The translations under genes and the position numbers were made by a program. From positions 1 through 56,645 of IMG/VR virus record IMGVR_UViG_3300021354_000516: a stretch of DNA of 56,645 bases. One strand, given 5' to 3'. Of this stretch, positions 16,317-53,499 are shown piece after piece (positions within the stretch are counted from its first letter, which is position 1; each line of letters opens with the position of its first letter). The DNA is from a virus. The notes below the pieces were generated by a model. The model was not told where the DNA came from and searched no databases. It saw only the letters and a program-made list of their open reading frames with translations.

Positions 16317-17930
16317 ATGGCAAAATCACTCGACGGCAACTTAATTAAAAGTGCCAACAAAAAACAAAAGTTTACAGAACAAGATCTACTTGACATCTCA
16401 TTATGTATAAACGATCCTCACTATTTCCTTAAGAATTTTTTCTTTATTCAACATCCTACTAAAGGTAAGATGAAATACGATGCATTTGAATATCAAAAAG
16501 AATTATTAGATAGTTATAACAATAATCGATTTAGTGTTAATATGCTAGGACGGCAGATGGGAAAAGCATTATCACTCGATACTCCTATTATAACACCAAC
16601 AGGATTTACCACAGTTGGTAATATTAAAGTAGGTGATACAATATTTGGTAGGAACGGAAAAACAACAAATGTAACATTTATTACTGAAATAATGAACGAT
16701 CGTCCGTGCTATGAAATAGAATTTACTCACGGTGATACCATTATTGCTGATGCAGAGCATTTATGGAACATCCAATTACCAAAAAAAGAAAGTGAAATCA
16801 CTATTACTACTTTAGAATTAATATCACACTTTAATAAATTAAAAGATACAACACAGAGTTTACATATTAAATCATCTGAATGTTTAGATTTTGATTTTAC
16901 ACCTGTTCCGATTGATCCGTATTATCTCGGACTATGGTTAGGTGATGGCAGTAGTAAAGATACTAGAATTACATGTTCTATTGATGATTATTCAGAATAT
17001 TTAAATTTCTTTAAAACAAATAATATTACCTTATCTCCTTTTAAACTTGATTCTCTTTCAACAAAAACCGGAACATTTTATGTTCCTGGTGGTGCAAGTA
17101 AATTAAAAGATTTAGGAGTATGGGGGAATAAGCATATTCCAGATCAATATATTTTTAATAGTAAAGAAGTTCGTTTAGAATTACTAAAAGGATTAATGGA
17201 TTCAGTTGGTACTTGTGAAAAATCAGGAGTTTCTAGATTTTATCAAAGTAATGAGACATTTATAGATCAAGTGAGATTATTATTATCAACCTTAGGAATT
17301 AAATCAACTAAAGGAGTGAATGAAACAACTCACAAAGATTGCTATACATTATGTTTTGCAGAAAAAACATTGGAGATCTTTAAATTACCAAGAAAATTAG
17401 AAAGACAACAATTGTTATTTGATCATCAACAGAATAAAAGATTTTATATTAAAGATATTAAATTGATAGATAGTGTACCAGTTCGATGTCTTCAGGTTGA
17501 TAATATAGATCATATGTTCTTATGCGGTACTACTTTAATACCAACCCATAATACAACCACAGCAGTTGGATATCTACTTTGGTATGCAATGTTTGTTCCT
17601 GATAGCACTATTTTAATCGCCGCACACAAATATACAGGTGCTAAAGAAATTATGCAAAGGTTACGCTATGCATACGAAACATGTCCTGATCATATTCGTT
17701 GCGGTGTAACAAGTTATAATAAAGAAAGTATAGAATTTGATAATGGTAGTCGTATTGTTGCACAAACAACTACAGAAACAACCGGTCGTGGTATGTCTTT
17801 ATCTTTACTTTATTGCTTAGATGGCGAAAGTACTACTGTTAAGGTTAGAAATAAACAAACATTGGTTGAGGAAGATATAACTCTTAAAGAATTATACACA
17901 AGATTGTATAATCCATTAATCATAATTTAA
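16317..17930 (+). CDS. 17: Terminase large subunit N-part, with complete intein and split-intein N-half
   Basis: The 537-aa product contains four pieces. Residues 1-83 are the terminase ATPase N-terminus up to GRQMGK. Residues 84-412 are a full intein. Residues 413-499 continue the ATPase from TTTAVGYLLWYAMF to GRGMSLSLLY. Residues 500-537 are the N-half of a split intein starting with Cys. Removing the first intein restores the Walker A GRQMGK-TTT, equivalent to the T4 gp17 motif. The extein stops exactly before Walker B, which is encoded in the gene at 18890. Three steps are therefore needed to make active gp17: cis-splicing, association of the split halves, and trans-splicing. The spliced extein total would be 522 aa (83+87+352). 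Confidence 0.92.
   Translation: MAKSLDGNLIKSANKKQKFTEQDLLDISLCINDPHYFLKNFFFIQHPTKGKMKYDAFEYQKELLDSYNNNRFSVNMLGRQMGKALSLDTPIITPTGFTTVGNIKVGDTIFGRNGKTTNVTFITEIMNDRPCYEIEFTHGDTIIADAEHLWNIQLPKKESEITITTLELISHFNKLKDTTQSLHIKSSECLDFDFTPVPIDPYYLGLWLGDGSSKDTRITCSIDDYSEYLNFFKTNNITLSPFKLDSLSTKTGTFYVPGGASKLKDLGVWGNKHIPDQYIFNSKEVRLELLKGLMDSVGTCEKSGVSRFYQSNETFIDQVRLLLSTLGIKSTKGVNETTHKDCYTLCFAEKTLEIFKLPRKLERQQLLFDHQQNKRFYIKDIKLIDSVPVRCLQVDNIDHMFLCGTTLIPTHNTTTAVGYLLWYAMFVPDSTILIAAHKYTGAKEIMQRLRYAYETCPDHIRCGVTSYNKESIEFDNGSRIVAQTTTETTGRGMSLSLLYCLDGESTTVKVRNKQTLVEEDITLKELYTRLYNPLIII
16566..17552 (+). mobile_element. Intein 1: class-3-type intein with LAGLIDADG endonuclease, in Walker A
   Basis: The 329-aa intein starts with Ala (ALSLDTPIITPTG), not Cys or Ser, and ends PTHN before a Thr. 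A Trp in block B (HLW, residue 150 of the host protein), a Cys in block F (VPVRCLQVDN, residue 391) and the Thr of PTHN (residue 410) form the WCT triplet that defines class 3 inteins, which splice through an internal Cys instead of the N-terminal residue. Two LAGLIDADG-like helices, YYLGLWLGDGSS (202-213) and LELLKGLMDSVGTC (287-300), show a monomeric homing endonuclease that looks intact. Insertion is between the Lys and Thr of Walker A. Confidence 0.88.
17814..17930 (+). mobile_element. Split intein 2, N-half (38 aa)
   Basis: After the extein residues SLLY the frame enters CLDGESTTVKVRNKQT..LKELYTRLYN and stops at TAA 17928-17930. The N-terminal Cys, the following Gly-Glu-Ser/Thr turn and the ELYTRL helix match the unusually short N-half of the AceL-TerL split intein, also found in phage large terminases. 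Typical split inteins (DnaE) break after about 100 residues, so this break is atypical. Confidence 0.85.
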
Positions 17931-17932
17931 GT

Positions 17933-17950
17933 GACGAGTTTGCATTTGTA
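17933..17950 (+). other. Ghost of the Walker B extein (DEFAFV)
   Basis: Two bases after the stop codon of the N-half, GACGAGTTTGCATTTGTA encodes DEFAFV, the same six residues found at the start of the C-extein (19223-19240, GATGAATTCGCATTTGTG). The two agree at 14 of 18 bases, and all four differences are synonymous. This is not in frame with either neighbouring gene. It looks like a remnant of an uninterrupted or differently split ancestor of the terminase gene, kept at the edge of the endonuclease insertion. Confidence 0.65.
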
Positions 17951-17956
17951 TAAATA
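17949..17956 (+). promoter_or_regulatory. Late promoter box for the free-standing endonuclease
   Basis: TATAAATA overlaps the end of the DEFAFV ghost. The predicted leader of about 26 nt before the ATG at 17988 is AT-rich with AACC and AAAAAT but no convincing ribosome site. Confidence 0.55.
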
Positions 17957-17987
17957 CATTTTTAAAATTAACCTTAAAAATTCAATT

Positions 17988-18923
17988 ATGCAAACTAAAC
18001 TTGAAAAATTTATAAAAAGAAATAGAAGACGTAATAAACATTTATACGATAATAATTTAACCGCCGGAGTTGATTATATTATATGTCCATTTAGCAACGA
18101 AAGGATGAGTATGATTAAATCATCGTATATTGAAAAAGTATTATTAATGACTGTTAATGATTACGATCGGTTATATCCTGGAGTTAGAGGGGTTTCTGAA
18201 AAACGTAAATCAAATATTAAGCAAGGGTTACATTCAATTGATCAGTCTTCAGGATTAACAAAATATCAAGTGTCTCAATTAAAGGCAAAAGAAGTTCTTC
18301 AAACAATAGGCAAAGATGGCCTATCTGGATATGCTCGTAAAGGACAAAAAACTAAACAAACTCACATGAATAATATTGACGAGTTTGGAAGAAATGGATA
18401 CACTCGCCAAGTTTATAATCGTCTAACAACAATATTACCAAACGGGTTAACTGTAGAAGAAAATGCACATCTAAAACAAAAAGAAACTTTACTAATTAAT
18501 AATATTTCCGGTACAGGTGGAGCAAGTAAGGTTTCTAAGAAAAAATTAAAACCAATATTAGAGTTTTTAGAAAAAAATAATATAGAATTTTATTTTGATA
18601 AATCCGAATATGGAATTAAAGATACCGATACAAATAATTATTATTTTTATGATTTAACCATACTAAAATACAATATTGCAATTGAATATCAATCAAGTGC
18701 ATGGCATTCAAATCCTATCTGGGATGAAATTAAATGGAATAGCTGGTGTCCACCACGTGGAAAGAAAAAAACAGCTTTAGAATCGTTAACTTACGATTAC
18801 AATAAAGCAAAATCATTATATAAATTTCGTAATATTGTTACGTATTATGTATGGGAAGACTCGGCAGAAAATGATGTTAAGGATATAATATGTTTGCTTC
18901 AAACACTGAATACGAAATATTAA
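17988..18923 (+). CDS. Free-standing EDxHD-type homing endonuclease inside the split intein
   Basis: From the ATG at 17988 (MQTKLEKFIKRN) the protein is 311 aa; an upstream GTG at 17931 is in frame but precedes the promoter. The N-terminal half is basic with DNA-binding-like segments (SGLTKYQVSQLKAKEVLQTIG, DEFGRNGYTRQVYNRL). The C-terminal third has the Vsr-like nuclease pattern of the fractured-gene endonucleases: EYGIKD, then YDLTI, IAIEYQSSAWHS and VTYYVWED. In such loci the endonuclease cuts alleles without the insertion and spreads the cassette. Its last 34 nt overlap the start of the terminase C-part, whose AAGGA ribosome site lies inside this gene. Confidence 0.8.
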   Translation: MQTKLEKFIKRNRRRNKHLYDNNLTAGVDYIICPFSNERMSMIKSSYIEKVLLMTVNDYDRLYPGVRGVSEKRKSNIKQGLHSIDQSSGLTKYQVSQLKAKEVLQTIGKDGLSGYARKGQKTKQTHMNNIDEFGRNGYTRQVYNRLTTILPNGLTVEENAHLKQKETLLINNISGTGGASKVSKKKLKPILEFLEKNNIEFYFDKSEYGIKDTDTNNYYFYDLTILKYNIAIEYQSSAWHSNPIWDEIKWNSWCPPRGKKKTALESLTYDYNKAKSLYKFRNIVTYYVWEDSAENDVKDIICLLQTLNTKY

Positions 18924-19219
18924 CACCAAATGGTTGGTGTAATTTTAACGGAATTACAGAAGTAGCCGGTAAAATAACTCATTCAATAAAATTAAAAAAT
19001 GGTGAAATAGTATCTGCGACTGCTGGTCATTATTTTTTTATTAATGATAGAAAAATTAAATTACAAGATCTTTCTATTGGAGATTTTATTGATACAATTT
19101 CTGGACCTCAACAAATAATAGAAATTAAAGAAAATTTAAAAACAACAGTATATGATATTGTTGAAGTAGATAATGAAAAACATCAATTTATTGTAAACCA
19201 TTGTTTTATAACAAAAAAT
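18890..19219 (+). mobile_element. Split intein 2, C-half (110 aa)
   Basis: The opening MFASNTEYEILTPNGWCNFNGI closely follows the AceL-TerL C-half pattern. The body contains GEIVSATAGHYFF (block B-like with His), GDFIDT and the F-block VYDIVEVDNEKHQFIVNHCFI. It ends TKN before Cys: the penultimate His usual at this point is Lys, while the terminal Asn and +1 Cys are present. Confidence 0.87.
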
Positions 19220-20278
19220 TGCGATGAATTCGCATTTGTGCCACCTAATGTTGCAAGCGAGTTTTGGACTTCAATATCGCCTACATTAGCAACAGGTGGT
19301 AAAGCAATTATTACATCAACACCTAACTCAGATGAAGATCAATTTGCACAAATTTGGAGTGAAGCCAATAAACGATTTGATGAATTTGGTAACGAACAAG
19401 CAATAGGTCGAAACGGATTTGCACCTTATATGGCACTTTGGAGCCAACATCCAGACCGTGATAAAAAATGGAAGAACGAAGAAATAGCACGGGTAGGGGA
19501 AGAACGCTTCAGACGTGAACACAATTGTGAATTTTTAGTATTCGATGAAACACTTATTAATTCTATAAGTTTATCTGATTTAGAAGCATCAAATCCTATA
19601 ATGAATATGGGACAAGTTCGATGGTATCGAAAGATTGATCCAGATGCAACATATATTGTTAGTTTAGATCCGTGTTTAGGCACAGGTGGAGACTATGCAG
19701 GAATTGAAGTTTTAGAAATTCCAAGCTTTCATCAGGTTGCAGAATGGCATCATAACACAACCCCAATACAAGCACAAGTTCGTATTATGCGTGATATTTG
19801 TAAACATATTGAAGATGAATGTACAAGACAAGATAGATCGATAAGTTTATATTTTTCAGTCGAAAATAACACAGTCGGTGAAGCTGCGTTAGTTTCGATA
19901 AACGAATTAGGTGAAGAAACTTATCCAGGTATGTTTTTAAGTGAACCGATTAAAAAAGGTCATGTACGTAGATATCGTAAAGGATTTAATACCACACATA
20001 AATCTAAATTAGCAATTGCTGCTAAGTTAAAACAGTTAATTGAAAATAAAACTTTAAAGATTTACAGTAAACCACTAATTAGTCAACTTAAAGCATATGT
20101 TGCTAAAGGACTTAGTTTTGAAGCTAAAACCGGAGAGAATGATGACCTAGTAGCTAGCCTATTACTAAATATTCGTATGGTTATGATGCTACAAGATTGG
20201 GATCCAAGTGTATATGAAAAGATGCATGAACATGTAAGTGAAGAGTTGATTTTGCCAATGCCAATCTTCGTTGGATAA
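18890..20278 (+). CDS. 17: Terminase large subunit C-part, starting with split-intein C-half
   Basis: Residues 1-110 are the C-half of the split intein, from MFASNTEYEILTPNG to FITKN, and residues 111-462 are terminase. The extein starts CDEFAFVPPN, the Walker B Asp-Glu, followed by the coupling motif ITSTPN and the packaging nuclease: SLDPCLGTGGDYAG, FSVENNTVGE and GENDDLVASLLL carry the acidic metal ligands. The start is set by the ATG at 18890 with AAGGATATAAT upstream, inside the endonuclease gene. No promoter is seen here, so expression should depend on read-through from the endonuclease transcript or on the 16304 promoter. T4 gp17 is 610 aa against 522 here after splicing. Confidence 0.92.
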   Translation: MFASNTEYEILTPNGWCNFNGITEVAGKITHSIKLKNGEIVSATAGHYFFINDRKIKLQDLSIGDFIDTISGPQQIIEIKENLKTTVYDIVEVDNEKHQFIVNHCFITKNCDEFAFVPPNVASEFWTSISPTLATGGKAIITSTPNSDEDQFAQIWSEANKRFDEFGNEQAIGRNGFAPYMALWSQHPDRDKKWKNEEIARVGEERFRREHNCEFLVFDETLINSISLSDLEASNPIMNMGQVRWYRKIDPDATYIVSLDPCLGTGGDYAGIEVLEIPSFHQVAEWHHNTTPIQAQVRIMRDICKHIEDECTRQDRSISLYFSVENNTVGEAALVSINELGEETYPGMFLSEPIKKGHVRRYRKGFNTTHKSKLAIAAKLKQLIENKTLKIYSKPLISQLKAYVAKGLSFEAKTGENDDLVASLLLNIRMVMMLQDWDPSVYEKMHEHVSEELILPMPIFVG

Positions 20279-35596: not shown

Positions 35597-37063
35597 ATGG
35601 ATGAACGTCAATATATTTTAAATTTATGGAACGAGTCTCCTAGAGTAGCAACTCATATTCTAAAGAGCAAAAATCCCAAATTATACTATCAAATTGATCA
35701 AATTGAAGGTAACTCTTTTTCAGAAAAAGCATGGAAATGGGTATATTCTAGAAATAATAGTTGTCTCGAATGCGGGTGTCCTACTAAATTTTTAGATTTT
35801 CGTCGAGGTTTTGCAATATATTGTAGTAGAAAATGTGTTGCAAATAATCAAACTATAAGTATTAAAAAAACAAAAACAAATCAAGAAAAATACGGAGTTG
35901 ACCATTTTTCAAAAACTGATCAGTATAAAGAACAGTTTAAAACAACTATTTTTGAAAAATATGGAGTTGAAAATCCCGGTCAAATATTAGAATTAAAACA
36001 GAAAAGAGCAAGGCAAAAACAATTAACATTCTTTAATAATATTATTGATAAAATTAAAGAATTTTCTATACCAAATTTTACATTTGACAATTATACAGAA
36101 GTTCGAGATTCACAATTATCTTGGACTTGTAAACTATGCAATGTTTCGTTTAATTCGAATATTTTTGGAAGATTACCAAAATGTACAACATGTTTTCCGA
36201 TTGGAAATTTTGGGGGTCAAAGCAGTATTGAAAAAGATATTTTAGAACATATTAGACAATTTTATAACGGGATTATTATTGAAAATTCAAGAGAAATTAT
36301 TTCTCCAAAAGAACTCGATTTATATTTTCCTAATGAAAAATTTGCAATTGAAATAAATGGAGTTTATTGGCACAGCGATAAACATCTAAGCAACACATAT
36401 CATTATGAAAAATTTAAATTATGCAACGATTCTCAGATAACTTTGTTAATGATAACCGATGAAGAATGGACTCGTAATAAAGAATTAATATTATCAATGA
36501 TAAAACATAGATTAGGTATTAGTAAAAATAAAATTTTTGGAAGAAAATGCAAATTAAAGGAAATTAATAATAAACTTGCACATCAATTTTTAGAAAAATA
36601 CCATATTAACGGATATTGCAAATCATCAGGACATTTAGGTTTATATTTTAATGAGCAATTAGTTTCAGTTTTTTCATATTCAACAAAAAATAGATTTAAA
36701 AAAGAAAATAACGAAATTGAAATTATTCGATTAGCGTTTTCTTCCTCAGTAATTGGCGGATTAGGAAAATTTATTTCGTTTATCAAACAATCATACCCGG
36801 GAAAAAAAATTATAACTTTTGCTGATTTAAGATATGGTGAAGGGAAAGTCTATGAAAAAAATAATTTTAAATTTATAAAAACAACCCCACCAGGATATTG
36901 GTATTTCTTAAATGGTCAAATGTATCATAGATTGTCGTGGCAAAAGAAAAACCTTGTTTCATTAGGTTATTCCAAAGATAAAACTGAAAAAGAAATAATG
37001 AATGAGTTAGGTGCCATAAGAATTTACGATTGTGGACATAATTATTTTGAATTAGGTGATTAA
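35597..37063 (+). CDS. Free-standing Vsr/EDxHD-type homing endonuclease after gp41
   Basis: The 488-aa protein has zinc knuckles (CLEC 56-59 with CSRKC 76-80; CKLC 178-181 with CTTC 196-199), two KYGVENP/KYGVDHF repeats (near 97-128) typical of phage homing endonuclease DNA-binding regions, and the nuclease core ELDLYF...FAIEINGVYWHSD (239-261) with ITLLMITDEEW. A C-terminal domain with LGLYFNEQLVSVFSYSTKNRF and ITFADLRYGEG follows. It starts one base after the gp41 stop and probably moves as an inserted gene. No own promoter is visible. The target is expected in or near gp41, by analogy with related loci. Confidence 0.82.
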   Translation: MDERQYILNLWNESPRVATHILKSKNPKLYYQIDQIEGNSFSEKAWKWVYSRNNSCLECGCPTKFLDFRRGFAIYCSRKCVANNQTISIKKTKTNQEKYGVDHFSKTDQYKEQFKTTIFEKYGVENPGQILELKQKRARQKQLTFFNNIIDKIKEFSIPNFTFDNYTEVRDSQLSWTCKLCNVSFNSNIFGRLPKCTTCFPIGNFGGQSSIEKDILEHIRQFYNGIIIENSREIISPKELDLYFPNEKFAIEINGVYWHSDKHLSNTYHYEKFKLCNDSQITLLMITDEEWTRNKELILSMIKHRLGISKNKIFGRKCKLKEINNKLAHQFLEKYHINGYCKSSGHLGLYFNEQLVSVFSYSTKNRFKKENNEIEIIRLAFSSSVIGGLGKFISFIKQSYPGKKIITFADLRYGEGKVYEKNNFKFIKTTPPGYWYFLNGQMYHRLSWQKKNLVSLGYSKDKTEKEIMNELGAIRIYDCGHNYFELGD

Positions 37064-51159: not shown

Positions 51160-53499
51160 TTAAAAATCGTTAAATTCTTCAATTGCCAACATATGACTTG
51201 TTCCGCAGTTAACAAATTTCCATGTTGTTCCTTGCCCTGGAAGATAAATTGGTTGAATTGGTACATAAGTTGTTGAATCTTTAAATGTAACGCCTAATTG
51301 ATAATTTGCATTATCACCCCAAGTCCATAAAGTTCCATCAGTTTTAATTGCCGAGGTAAAATTATTTCCACATGAAACTTGTTTCCAATTAGTGCCAAAT
51401 GCTATAGTTTGAATTGGTGAACTTTTATCAGCCTGTGTGCTGTTACCGAGTTGTCCATTTCCATTAAAACCCCAAGTCCATAAAGTTCCATCAGTTTTTA
51501 TTGCCGAACAATGTTTATCACCACATTCTATAGTTTTCCAATTTTTTCCGAGAGCAATAGTTTGAACTGGTAAACTTTTAAAAGTTTGTGTATCATTGCC
51601 AAGTTGTCCTTTATCATTAAAACCCCAGGTCCATAAAGTTCCATCAGTTTTTAGTGCCATTGAAAAATTTCCTCCACTAGCAATATCTTTCCAATTATTT
51701 GTACTCGAAAGAACTTGAATCGGTGATAGTTTAGTAGGAGTTTGTGAATTATCGCCAAGTTGTCCACTAGCATTATTACCCCAAGACCATAAAGTTCCAT
51801 CAGTTTTTAGTGCCATTGAAGAAGATCCGCCGGCAGCAATTTGAACTTTATCCCAATTTGTTCCACGTGCTATAGTTTGAACTGGTGAACTTTTTGCAGT
51901 ATTAGTATTATCACCAAGTTGTCCACTATTATTAAACCCCCAAGTCCATAAAGTGCCATCTGCTTGAACTGCTACCGTATGAATACTTCCTGCAGAAACT
52001 TGTTTCCAATTTGTTCCTAGTGCTATAGTTTGAACTGGTGAACTTCTACTACCTCGTGTACTATCACCGAGTTGTCCATTATTATTTAACCCCCAGGTCC
52101 ATAAAGTTCCATCTGTTTTTATTGCAGCAACATGATAACCATTAATACCATTACCTAACGGCACCGAAACTTGTTGCCAAGTAGTACCACCTGCAATTGT
52201 TTGAACAGGTGAACTTCTCGCCGATACAGTACTACTATTACTACTATCGCCAAGTTGTCCATTATTATTTAACCCCCAAGTCCACAAAGTTCCATCTTTT
52301 TTAACTGATGAAGTAAAAAATTTACCAGCAGAAACTTGTCGCCAAGTTGTTCCAAGTGCGATAGTTTGAACTGGTGAACTTCTACTAGTTGTTGTACTAT
52401 CACCGAGTTGTCCAGCAGAATTTCTCCCCCAAGTCCATAAAGTGCCATCAGTTTTTATTGCAGCAGTGTGCTGATATCCACATGAAACTTGTTGCCAAGT
52501 AGTACCACCTGTAATTGTTTGAATTGGTGAACTTCTACTACCTCGTGTACTATCACCGAGTTGTCCAGCAGAATTTCTCCCCCAAGTCCATAAAGTTCCA
52601 TCAGTTTTTATTGCTGATGTTTGATCATAACCACATGAAACTTGTTGCCAATTTGTTCCAAGTGCGATAGTTTGAACTGGTTGATTTCTATTAGTTATGG
52701 TAAAATCGCCAAGTTGCCCAAATGAATTTGACCCCCAAGTCCATAAAGTTCCGTCAGTTTTTATTCCAGCAGCATTACTAACGGAAATACTAACTTGTTT
52801 CCAATTAGAATCTCCTCCAAGTGTTTGAACTGGTGAACTTTTTGGAGTTATTGTATTATCACCAAGTTGTCCATTTGTATTATCACCCCAAACCCATAAT
52901 GTTCCGTCGGTTTTTATTGCTGAGTTAAAAGTTGACCCACTAACAACCTTTTTCCAATTAGTGCCAAATGTGATAGTTTGAATTGGTGAACTTCTGTTGT
53001 TTCGTGTATTATCGCCAAGTTGTCCAGAAGTATTTGACCCCCAGGTCCATAAAGTTCCGTCAGTTTTTACTGCTGAAGTTTGATCAGTCCCGCACGAAAC
53101 CTGGTTCCAATTTGTTCCAAGTGCTGTAGTTTGAACTGGTTGACTTCTACTAGTTCGTGAATTATCGCCAAGTTGTCCAGAAGTATTAAACCCCCAAGAC
53201 CATAAAGTTCCATCTGTTTTAATTGCTAAAGAGTGAGAACTTCCAGCACCCCCTTGTTTCCAATTTATTCCAAATTCAGTTGTTTGAGTTAATATCCAAA
53301 CATCAGGCCCATTTGAATTATTACCGATCTGCCCGTTAAGATTTTTCCCCCAAAGAAATAATCCAGCAGATCTATTTAAATCGTTAAGAAAAGGATAAAC
53401 ATCTATTAAATAACTTTTAGTAACGTATTTTGTGCCTAAATCAACATTTCCTTCGCCACCTTCAACTAAGTTACTTATAAATTGATTACTTGAAGACAT
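51160..53499 (-). CDS. RCC1-repeat protein B (14 repeats), probable tail fibre/adhesin
   Basis: The 779-aa protein has an N-terminal segment of about 45 residues (SNQFISNLVEGGEGNVDLGTKY..) with a GGxGNxDLGTKYVTKSYL pattern like fibre attachment regions, and then 14 RCC1 units, from LFLWGKNLNGQIGN to TLWTWGDNANYQLGV. This equals two seven-bladed propellers. The last unit carries a longer loop (FKDSTTYVPIQPIYLPGQG). The C-terminus ends shortly after the final closing strand. AAAGGAAATAAAT gives a ribosome site. Blades are highly similar to protein A, with one 114-bp identical block. Confidence 0.8.
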   Translation of the reverse strand: MSSSNQFISNLVEGGEGNVDLGTKYVTKSYLIDVYPFLNDLNRSAGLFLWGKNLNGQIGNNSNGPDVWILTQTTEFGINWKQGGAGSSHSLAIKTDGTLWSWGFNTSGQLGDNSRTSRSQPVQTTALGTNWNQVSCGTDQTSAVKTDGTLWTWGSNTSGQLGDNTRNNRSSPIQTITFGTNWKKVVSGSTFNSAIKTDGTLWVWGDNTNGQLGDNTITPKSSPVQTLGGDSNWKQVSISVSNAAGIKTDGTLWTWGSNSFGQLGDFTITNRNQPVQTIALGTNWQQVSCGYDQTSAIKTDGTLWTWGRNSAGQLGDSTRGSRSSPIQTITGGTTWQQVSCGYQHTAAIKTDGTLWTWGRNSAGQLGDSTTTSRSSPVQTIALGTTWRQVSAGKFFTSSVKKDGTLWTWGLNNNGQLGDSSNSSTVSARSSPVQTIAGGTTWQQVSVPLGNGINGYHVAAIKTDGTLWTWGLNNNGQLGDSTRGSRSSPVQTIALGTNWKQVSAGSIHTVAVQADGTLWTWGFNNSGQLGDNTNTAKSSPVQTIARGTNWDKVQIAAGGSSSMALKTDGTLWSWGNNASGQLGDNSQTPTKLSPIQVLSSTNNWKDIASGGNFSMALKTDGTLWTWGFNDKGQLGNDTQTFKSLPVQTIALGKNWKTIECGDKHCSAIKTDGTLWTWGFNGNGQLGNSTQADKSSPIQTIAFGTNWKQVSCGNNFTSAIKTDGTLWTWGDNANYQLGVTFKDSTTYVPIQPIYLPGQGTTWKFVNCGTSHMLAIEEFNDF
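51937..52050 (-). repeat. 114-bp block shared with RCC1 gene A
   Basis: Identical to 48942-49055; see that entry. A second shared run, encoding ASARSSPVQT-type loops with SSNSSTVS, is found at about 49976-50036 and 52199-52260. Confidence 0.8.

What the first reader, a model, noticed from the sequence alone, without database searches (positions are those of the whole stretch)
17933..17950. Ghost of the Walker B codons (DEFAFV) after the N-half stop
GACGAGTTTGCATTTGTA encodes DEFAFV in a non-used frame, exactly the residues that begin the true C-extein 1.3 kb downstream. Four third-position differences and no replacement changes separate the copies. A six-residue match by chance is very unlikely. 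It may be the scar left when the endonuclease cassette entered an intein-free or contiguous allele, giving direct evidence for how fractured genes arise. The TATAAATA promoter overlaps its last bases.
Basis: seen in the sequence. Interest (0 to 1): 0.72.

Follow-up and report, generated by a model that had tools for sequence, protein, structure and literature searches.

The report
Gene-splitting endonuclease's target copy as switch
A DNA-cutting selfish gene lodged inside a split phage packaging gene carries, right at its own start signal, a short copy of the packaging-gene sequence it most likely recognises, kept across dozens of phages as if it were a built-in off-switch rather than an old scar.

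Summary
Window 17933-17950 encodes DEFAFV out of frame, with four wobble differences from the C-extein copy at 19223-19240. It is not a scar private to this genome. A scan of viral contigs finds it in 26 others, all fractured terL genes, always just before the homing-endonuclease gene and abutting TATAAATA. A ghost-independent scan finds it, exact or near-exact, in 23 of 25 loci. Over an endonuclease tree of 10.5 substitutions per site it changed 3, 0 and 27 times at codon positions 1, 2 and 3. It sits in three different frames relative to the upstream ORF, so it is not translated there. It does not follow its own C-extein. A neutral scar cannot do this. A second, unrelated endonuclease at another intein site of terL has its own out-of-frame mimic of its own target beside a late-promoter motif, with the same wobble signature; that mimic co-varies with the local target. 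Best explanation: an autorepression operator, built as a copy of part of the homing site, over a T4-type late promoter. It works like the I-TevI operator but with intein-borne endonucleases and at codon-level resolution.

The parts
16317..16565 (+). terL N-extein, first part, up to the Walker A motif (GRQMGK)
   Evidence: tblastn against intein-free terL alleles L001-L006
16566..17552 (+). contiguous LAGLIDADG intein 1 in the Walker A motif
   Evidence: PF14528 LAGLIDADG_3, E 1.1e-6; absent in L001-L006
17553..17813 (+). terL N-extein, second part, ending ...GMSLSLLY
   Evidence: 92-100% identical in intein-free alleles L001-L006
17814..17930 (+). N-terminal half of split intein 2 (CLDGESTTVKV...PLIII) with stop TAA
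   Evidence: 63-84% identical N-halves in about 30 loci
17932..17949 (+). target mimic ('ghost'), T-GAC-GAG-TTT-GCA-TTT-GT: proposed autorepression operator copying the right half of the endonuclease's homing site
   Evidence: near-invariant at codon positions 1-2, wobble variation only, in 27 other loci
17949..17956 (+). T4-type late promoter motif TATAAATA
   Evidence: same motif 4-7 nt before ORF start codons in this phage group
17988..18923 (+). free-standing homing endonuclease gene (311 aa): conserved N-terminal domain about 1-140 (likely target recognition) and a Vsr-like nuclease domain
   Evidence: the same N-domain is joined to an HNH-like nuclease in other loci
18890..19219 (+). C-terminal half of split intein 2, overlapping the endonuclease gene's end by 34 nt
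   Evidence: (PF14890 below its cut-off)
19220..20278 (+). terL C-extein (CDEFAFVPPN...), with the true Walker B codons at 19223-19240

Best explanation
The ghost is a cis-acting operator for negative autoregulation of the homing endonuclease. The endonuclease's N-terminal domain is proposed to recognise the terL sequence just downstream of the intein insertion site, reading Y-GAY-GAR-TTY-GCN-TTY-GT, that is, the positions that the protein code fixes while tolerating wobble changes. A copy of that half-site sits immediately upstream of, and overlaps by two bases, the late promoter TATAAATA that drives the endonuclease. As endonuclease accumulates late in infection it would bind the copy and block the phage late RNA polymerase. 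The copy should not be cut because the other half of the homing site (the N-extein side, ...LLY) is missing. Shown by sequence: presence, position, conservation, wobble-only change, lack of a coding frame, promoter motif with fixed spacing, and an independent second case at another site. Inferred: that the N-domain binds it, that binding represses, and that it is not cleaved.
For: (1) Placement: in 25 of 27 loci the order is mimic, TATAAATA (CATAAATA in L115), 4-5 nt, ATG. TATAAATA also peaks 4-7 nt before ORF starts across this phage group (23 of 30 within 45 nt), matching a T4 late promoter at -13 to -6 (PMC2988020). (2) Selection: 3/0/27 changes at codon positions 1/2/3 on a tree of 10.5 substitutions per column; variable flanks. 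With wobbles left free, the scan returns the same 26 contigs, all synonymous, although a random four-base set would be synonymous with P about 0.06. (3) It goes with the endonuclease N-domain even when the nuclease domain and C-intein are swapped (L084/L098 against L099). (4) Not coding: the mimic lies in all three frames relative to the N-intein ORF. (5) Independent second case: endonuclease 2 (DUF7487) at the terL ERFRRE[YHMI]x|CEF site has an out-of-frame mimic of its N-extein next to [AGC][AC]TAAATA in 11 distinct leaders; matches 61/73/29 of 99 at codon positions 1/2/3 (26/33/25 expected); own target beats permuted targets at positions 1-2 (134 against 115.5, P<5e-5) but not at wobbles. 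(6) Precedent: I-TevI binds an operator over its late promoter that resembles its homing site at 15/20 nt, cuts it about 100-fold less, and represses; [quoted passage not shown]
Against: No binding, cleavage or expression data. The homing site of this endonuclease is inferred from the insertion site. L118 and L119 have the endonuclease without a recognisable mimic, and Salicola phage SCTP-2 has neither mimic nor adjacent N-half. TATAAATA is not over-represented in the window overall (8 found, 11 expected), and the window itself has 31 nt, not 4-5, to its ATG. The site-2 own-target signal may partly reflect shared descent.
Confidence: 0.72

Rival explanations
1. Scar: a relic of the terL target left when the endonuclease cassette entered an intein-free or contiguous allele, with no present function.
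For: It is a real terL copy at the cassette's left edge. In most loci the N-intein stop codon is formed by the copy's own TGA, as expected if the N-intein reading frame had run into inserted target DNA.
Against: Conserved at codon positions 1-2 over a tree with 10.5 substitutions per column; synonymous-only wobble changes; no tracking of the own C-extein; a second, unrelated endonuclease at another site shows the same, with co-variation with the local target.
Confidence: 0.06
2. The mimic binds the endonuclease but for another purpose: a decoy that titrates it, an activator site, or a docking site used in homing or in re-invading endonuclease-less split-intein alleles.
For: All the selection evidence applies equally. 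Endonuclease-less split alleles exist that keep part of the mimic (L007/L009).
Against: The tight link to a promoter motif at both sites favours transcription control; in known T4 cases such sites repress (PMC2988022). If it were a cleavable site it would cut its own genome.
Confidence: 0.13
3. The DEFAFV codons are translated, for example by +1 frameshift at TGA-C as a tail on the N-intein.
For: Only synonymous wobble changes; in most loci the N-intein ORF ends at TGA-C/T with the mimic in the +1 frame; in L093 and L102 it is fused in frame.
Against: In the window, L091, L101, L090, L107 and L121 the frame or stop differs, so no single recoding event works. L117/L123 read DKFAFV and L121 NEIAFV. 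No start codon precedes it. A tail on the N-intein would be discarded by splicing. At site 2 several mimics contain stop codons.
Confidence: 0.03
4. RNA-level control: the leader forms a structure that hides the start codon on read-through transcripts, and the terL resemblance is secondary.
For: In the window GUUUGCAU in the mimic can pair with AUGCAAAC at the start codon; T4 endonucleases use such hairpins (PMC2988022).
Against: No common structure: z-scores -0.6 to -1.8 in five loci, and the pairing is absent where ATG follows TATAAATA by 4-5 nt. Does not explain the match to target codons.
Confidence: 0.04
5. Chance resemblance or a generic leader unrelated to terL.
For: None beyond the short length; 18 nt alone could be doubted.
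Against: P about 5e-7 in the gap, recurrence in 26 contigs, and only unrelated hits in 257 Gb of genomes. Other TATAAATA-ATG genes of the group listed show no such sequence upstream.
Confidence: 0.01

Closest known systems
I-TevI operator of the phage T4 td intron (Edgell et al. 2004, as reviewed in PMC2988022), and the putative I-TevII and I-TevIII operators
   Same: An endonuclease gene inside a split host gene, driven by a T4 late promoter, with a copy of part of its homing site overlapping that promoter; lacks the other part of the site needed for cutting.
   Different: Here the host element is a split intein, not a group I intron. The enzymes are Vsr-like, HNH-like or DUF7487 types, not GIY-YIG. 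The copy resolves into codon degeneracy across about 27 loci, abuts TATAAATA, and leaves 4-5 nt to ATG (probable leaderless message). A second family at another site co-varies with its local target. Binding and repression are not tested.
Fractured genes with split inteins and free-standing endonucleases (Dassa et al. 2009, NAR; cited from memory, not held in the library)
   Same: N-half plus N-intein, free-standing endonuclease, C-intein plus C-half in one locus; Vsr-like nuclease.
   Different: Host gene terL of T4-like phages of environmental origin; I know of no report there of target-mimic leader elements (not checkable here).
T4 late promoters (PMC2988020)
   Same: TATAAATA, and variants A/G at -13 and AC/GC at -13/-12.
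   Different: Spacing to ATG places the inferred start of transcription at or next to the AUG in most loci.

Membership tests
I-TevI-type homing-endonuclease operator | sequence similarity between the leader and the endonuclease's own homing site | tested here: met
   17-18 nt; 14/18 identical to the C-extein in the window; longer matches to intein-free alleles such as L003. The homing site itself is inferred from the insertion point.
I-TevI-type homing-endonuclease operator | overlap with, or contact to, the promoter of the endonuclease gene | tested here: met
   The late-promoter motif abuts the mimic in all 27 complete loci; promoter-type position before ATG shown group-wide. Promoter activity itself is not tested.
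I-TevI-type homing-endonuclease operator | lacks the part of the homing site that is cut | tested here: inconclusive
   The N-extein half (LLY side) is absent next to the mimic, but the real cut position is unknown.
I-TevI-type homing-endonuclease operator | the endonuclease binds it and represses transcription | not testable with these tools
   needs gel-shift or footprint and reporter assays
I-TevI-type homing-endonuclease operator | borne by a GIY-YIG endonuclease in a group I intron (literal I-TevI family) | tested here: not met
   Split intein and non-GIY-YIG enzyme. Hence 'works like', not a member of the same protein family.
Fractured gene with split intein | both intein halves, with extein halves homologous to a contiguous host gene | tested here: met
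   intein-free alleles L001-L006 join Nb and Cext directly
Fractured gene with split intein | free-standing endonuclease between the halves | tested here: met
   ORF 17988-18923; relatives in about 30 loci
Fractured gene with split intein | protein trans-splicing | not testable with these tools
   conserved splice-junction residues only (C1, N-C+1)
T4 late promoter | 8-bp TATA box about one helical turn before the start of transcription | tested here: inconclusive
   Consensus present with fixed spacing to ATG; start of transcription not mapped; not enriched overall in the window

The most novel reading that the evidence does not exclude
Unrelated homing endonucleases that fracture phage genes have independently kept transcriptional off-switches made of a copy of their own target's codons, and switch, enzyme and target co-evolve at the amino-acid-determining positions. 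The DNA-binding specificity of uncharacterised endonucleases could then be read directly from genome sequence by finding the target mimic in front of the gene.
Probability: 0.5. Interest if true: 0.82.

Novelty: new variant of a known kind. Interest (0 to 1): 0.7.

Why it matters
It turns an apparent insertion scar into a candidate regulatory site. It extends the I-TevI autorepression principle, shown for one intron enzyme, to split-intein endonucleases of other nuclease classes. Because the site is a natural record of what the enzyme binds, comparison across loci gives a recognition profile (Y-GAY-GAR-TTY-GCN-TTY-GT) without an experiment: it appears to read the bases the protein code fixes and ignore wobble changes. 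That makes the coevolution of endonuclease, operator and host target directly testable in environmental phages.

Tried and rejected
Gene conversion from the C-extein: rejected, wobbles do not track it. Translation or frameshifting: rejected by frame, stops and DKFAFV/NEIAFV variants. RNA hairpin: no common structure. Chance: rejected. Finding relatives with the window endonuclease alone gave nothing in viral contigs and five distant phage hits; the terL C-extein and DNA patterns worked instead. A four-sequence N-domain alignment gave only six loci. Tenacibaculum PTm1 DNA polymerase fracture: no leader and no mimic seen. Site-2 loci with other nucleases (L102 HNH-like, L118 GIY-YIG-like): no mimic. 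Per-locus best-match test of site 1 was weak for diverged rows such as L061 and L121, so conservation across loci was used instead. The Dassa 2009 paper is not held.

Full report
Observation. The 18 bases at 17933-17950 encode DEFAFV out of frame and repeat, with four third-position changes, the C-extein codons at 19223-19240. The C-extein actually begins with the splicing cysteine, C-DEFAFV. The locus is a fractured terL: N-extein with a contiguous LAGLIDADG intein in Walker A, then the N-half of a second intein, a free-standing endonuclease gene, the C-half of the intein and the C-extein. Intein-free alleles, 99-100% identical over the second part of the N-extein in L001-L004, join the same sequence directly as ...LLYCDEFAFVPP. 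By a dinucleotide model the hexapeptide is expected 5e-7 times in the 57-nt gap.

The element is not private to this genome. Searching viral contigs with the C-extein alone gave 80 terL loci, of which four contigs (three distinct) are split at this site with an endonuclease or its remnant; all three carry the copy. Searching for the copy plus TATAAATA gave 26 contigs, all fractured terL loci with the copy between N-intein and endonuclease. Searching for an endonuclease motif without reference to the copy gave 25 contigs, all fractured terL: 15 exact DEFAFV copies, six DKFAFV, two NEIAFV, and two loci (L118, L119) without a recognisable copy whose leaders are much longer. A control scan in which every wobble base was left free returned exactly the same 26 contigs, so no non-synonymous third base exists among them. 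The same pattern in 257 Gb of prokaryote genomes hit two unrelated coding places, EDFAFV and DDFAFV.

Selection. Aligned in 27 complete loci, the twelve first and second codon positions are nearly invariant, the wobble positions vary only between pyrimidines or between purines (freely at Ala), and sequence after TATAAATA is close to random. On a tree of the endonuclease N-domain of total length 10.5 substitutions per column, the copy changed 3, 0 and 27 times at codon positions 1, 2 and 3; with rows found independently of the copy the numbers are 3, 0 and 18. A functionless scar would be erased over that distance. Conversion by the neighbouring C-extein is not supported: wobbles match the own C-extein 59 times in 125 against 60.0 for shuffled pairs, and five loci whose C-extein reads DEFAYV still have DEFAFV in the copy.

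Not a coding sequence. The copy lies in different frames relative to the N-intein ORF (offset of the stop codon -1, -5, -9, -11 or +18 nt), has no start codon, and some versions (DKFAFV) would destroy the Walker B glutamate. The protein-like pattern therefore points to a DNA reader whose specificity is fitted to the protein-coding constraint of its target. Reading purine against pyrimidine at wobble positions is chemically simple, and tolerance of wobble changes in endonuclease targets is established in general (from my own knowledge).

Promoter. The copy abuts TATAAATA, the T4 late promoter box at -13 to -6 (PMC2988020). In 25 of 27 loci the ATG follows by 4-5 nt, and TATAAATA shows the same 4-7 nt spacing before other ORFs of this phage group (23 of 30 cases within 45 nt), so late, nearly leaderless messages appear normal here. 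In the window the spacing is 31 nt. TATAAATA is not enriched in the window as a whole.

Independent second case. Several of the same genomes have a further split intein later in terL, at ERFRRE[YHMI]x|CEF, with an unrelated endonuclease (DUF7487). In 11 distinct leaders of that gene an out-of-frame stretch directly after a late-promoter variant ([AGC][AC]TAAATA; variants with A or with AC/GC at -13/-12 are documented) mimics the N-extein: matches at codon positions 1/2/3 are 61/73/29 of 99, expected 26/33/25. With the register fixed without using the own target, own targets still beat permuted ones at positions 1-2 (134 against 115.5, P<5e-5) and not at wobbles. For example L142 reads ARERFSREM for its GEERFRREM, and L151 A**RF*REH for its GDERFRREH. 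Loci at this site with HNH-like or GIY-YIG-like enzymes (L102, L118) lack a mimic, and L138 lacks both mimic and promoter motif.

Interpretation. The closest known thing is the I-TevI operator: similarity 15/20 between homing site and a sequence over the late promoter, equal binding, about 100-fold less cutting, and repression (PMC2988022). The anatomy here is the same, in a split-intein setting and with other enzyme classes. I give 0.72 to autorepression, 0.13 to another role of endonuclease binding, and little to scar, coding or RNA structure. The step from conserved binding-site copy to repression is inferred.

Limits. Site 1 is always terL, so co-variation could be tested only at site 2, where descent is shared between leader and target. 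Collections are fragmentary. The Dassa 2009 paper that described fractured genes was not available.

Noticed in passing
L007 857-1387; L009 4470-5000: Split intein whose endonuclease has been deleted: the mimic is cut after DEFA and joined to the last 36 codons of the endonuclease, which overlap the C-intein.
   Followed up: partly
L084, L098 against L099: Same N-half and mimic but exchanged nuclease domain (HNH-like against Vsr-like) together with the C-intein: recombination inside the endonuclease gene at about codon 140.
   Followed up: partly
L108 and L128 (Salicola phage SCTP-2, MF360958): TerL halves lie about 38 kb apart on the record in a split-intein arrangement; the endonuclease stays beside the C-half and no mimic is present.
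   Followed up: partly
L129-L131 (Campylobacter phage records, e.g. KX236333): The annotated terminase gene ends in a related N-intein half (55% over 31 aa) with no C-half next to it; the C-half must be elsewhere.
   Followed up: no
L090 322-1155; L094 755-1588; L107 22-552: A diverged partial terL-like sequence (33-39% identity) lies directly upstream of the fractured terL.
   Followed up: no
L058 1555-3741: Walker A site of terL also fractured, with an endonuclease gene that overlaps both halves.
   Followed up: no
window 17938-17995: GTTTGCAT in the mimic is the reverse complement of ATGCAAAC at the endonuclease start codon; on read-through RNA this could hide the start codon. Seen only in the window.
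   Followed up: partly
window 5329, 37635 and loci L001-L080: TATAAATA with 4-7 nt to ATG is common at gene starts of this phage group, suggesting late messages with almost no leader.
   Followed up: partly
window 35597-37060: Second homing endonuclease gene (PHROG 3339) beside a DnaB-like replicative helicase gene.
   Followed up: no
window 51160-53499: RCC1-like repeat protein (PHROG 16766 and others).
   Followed up: no
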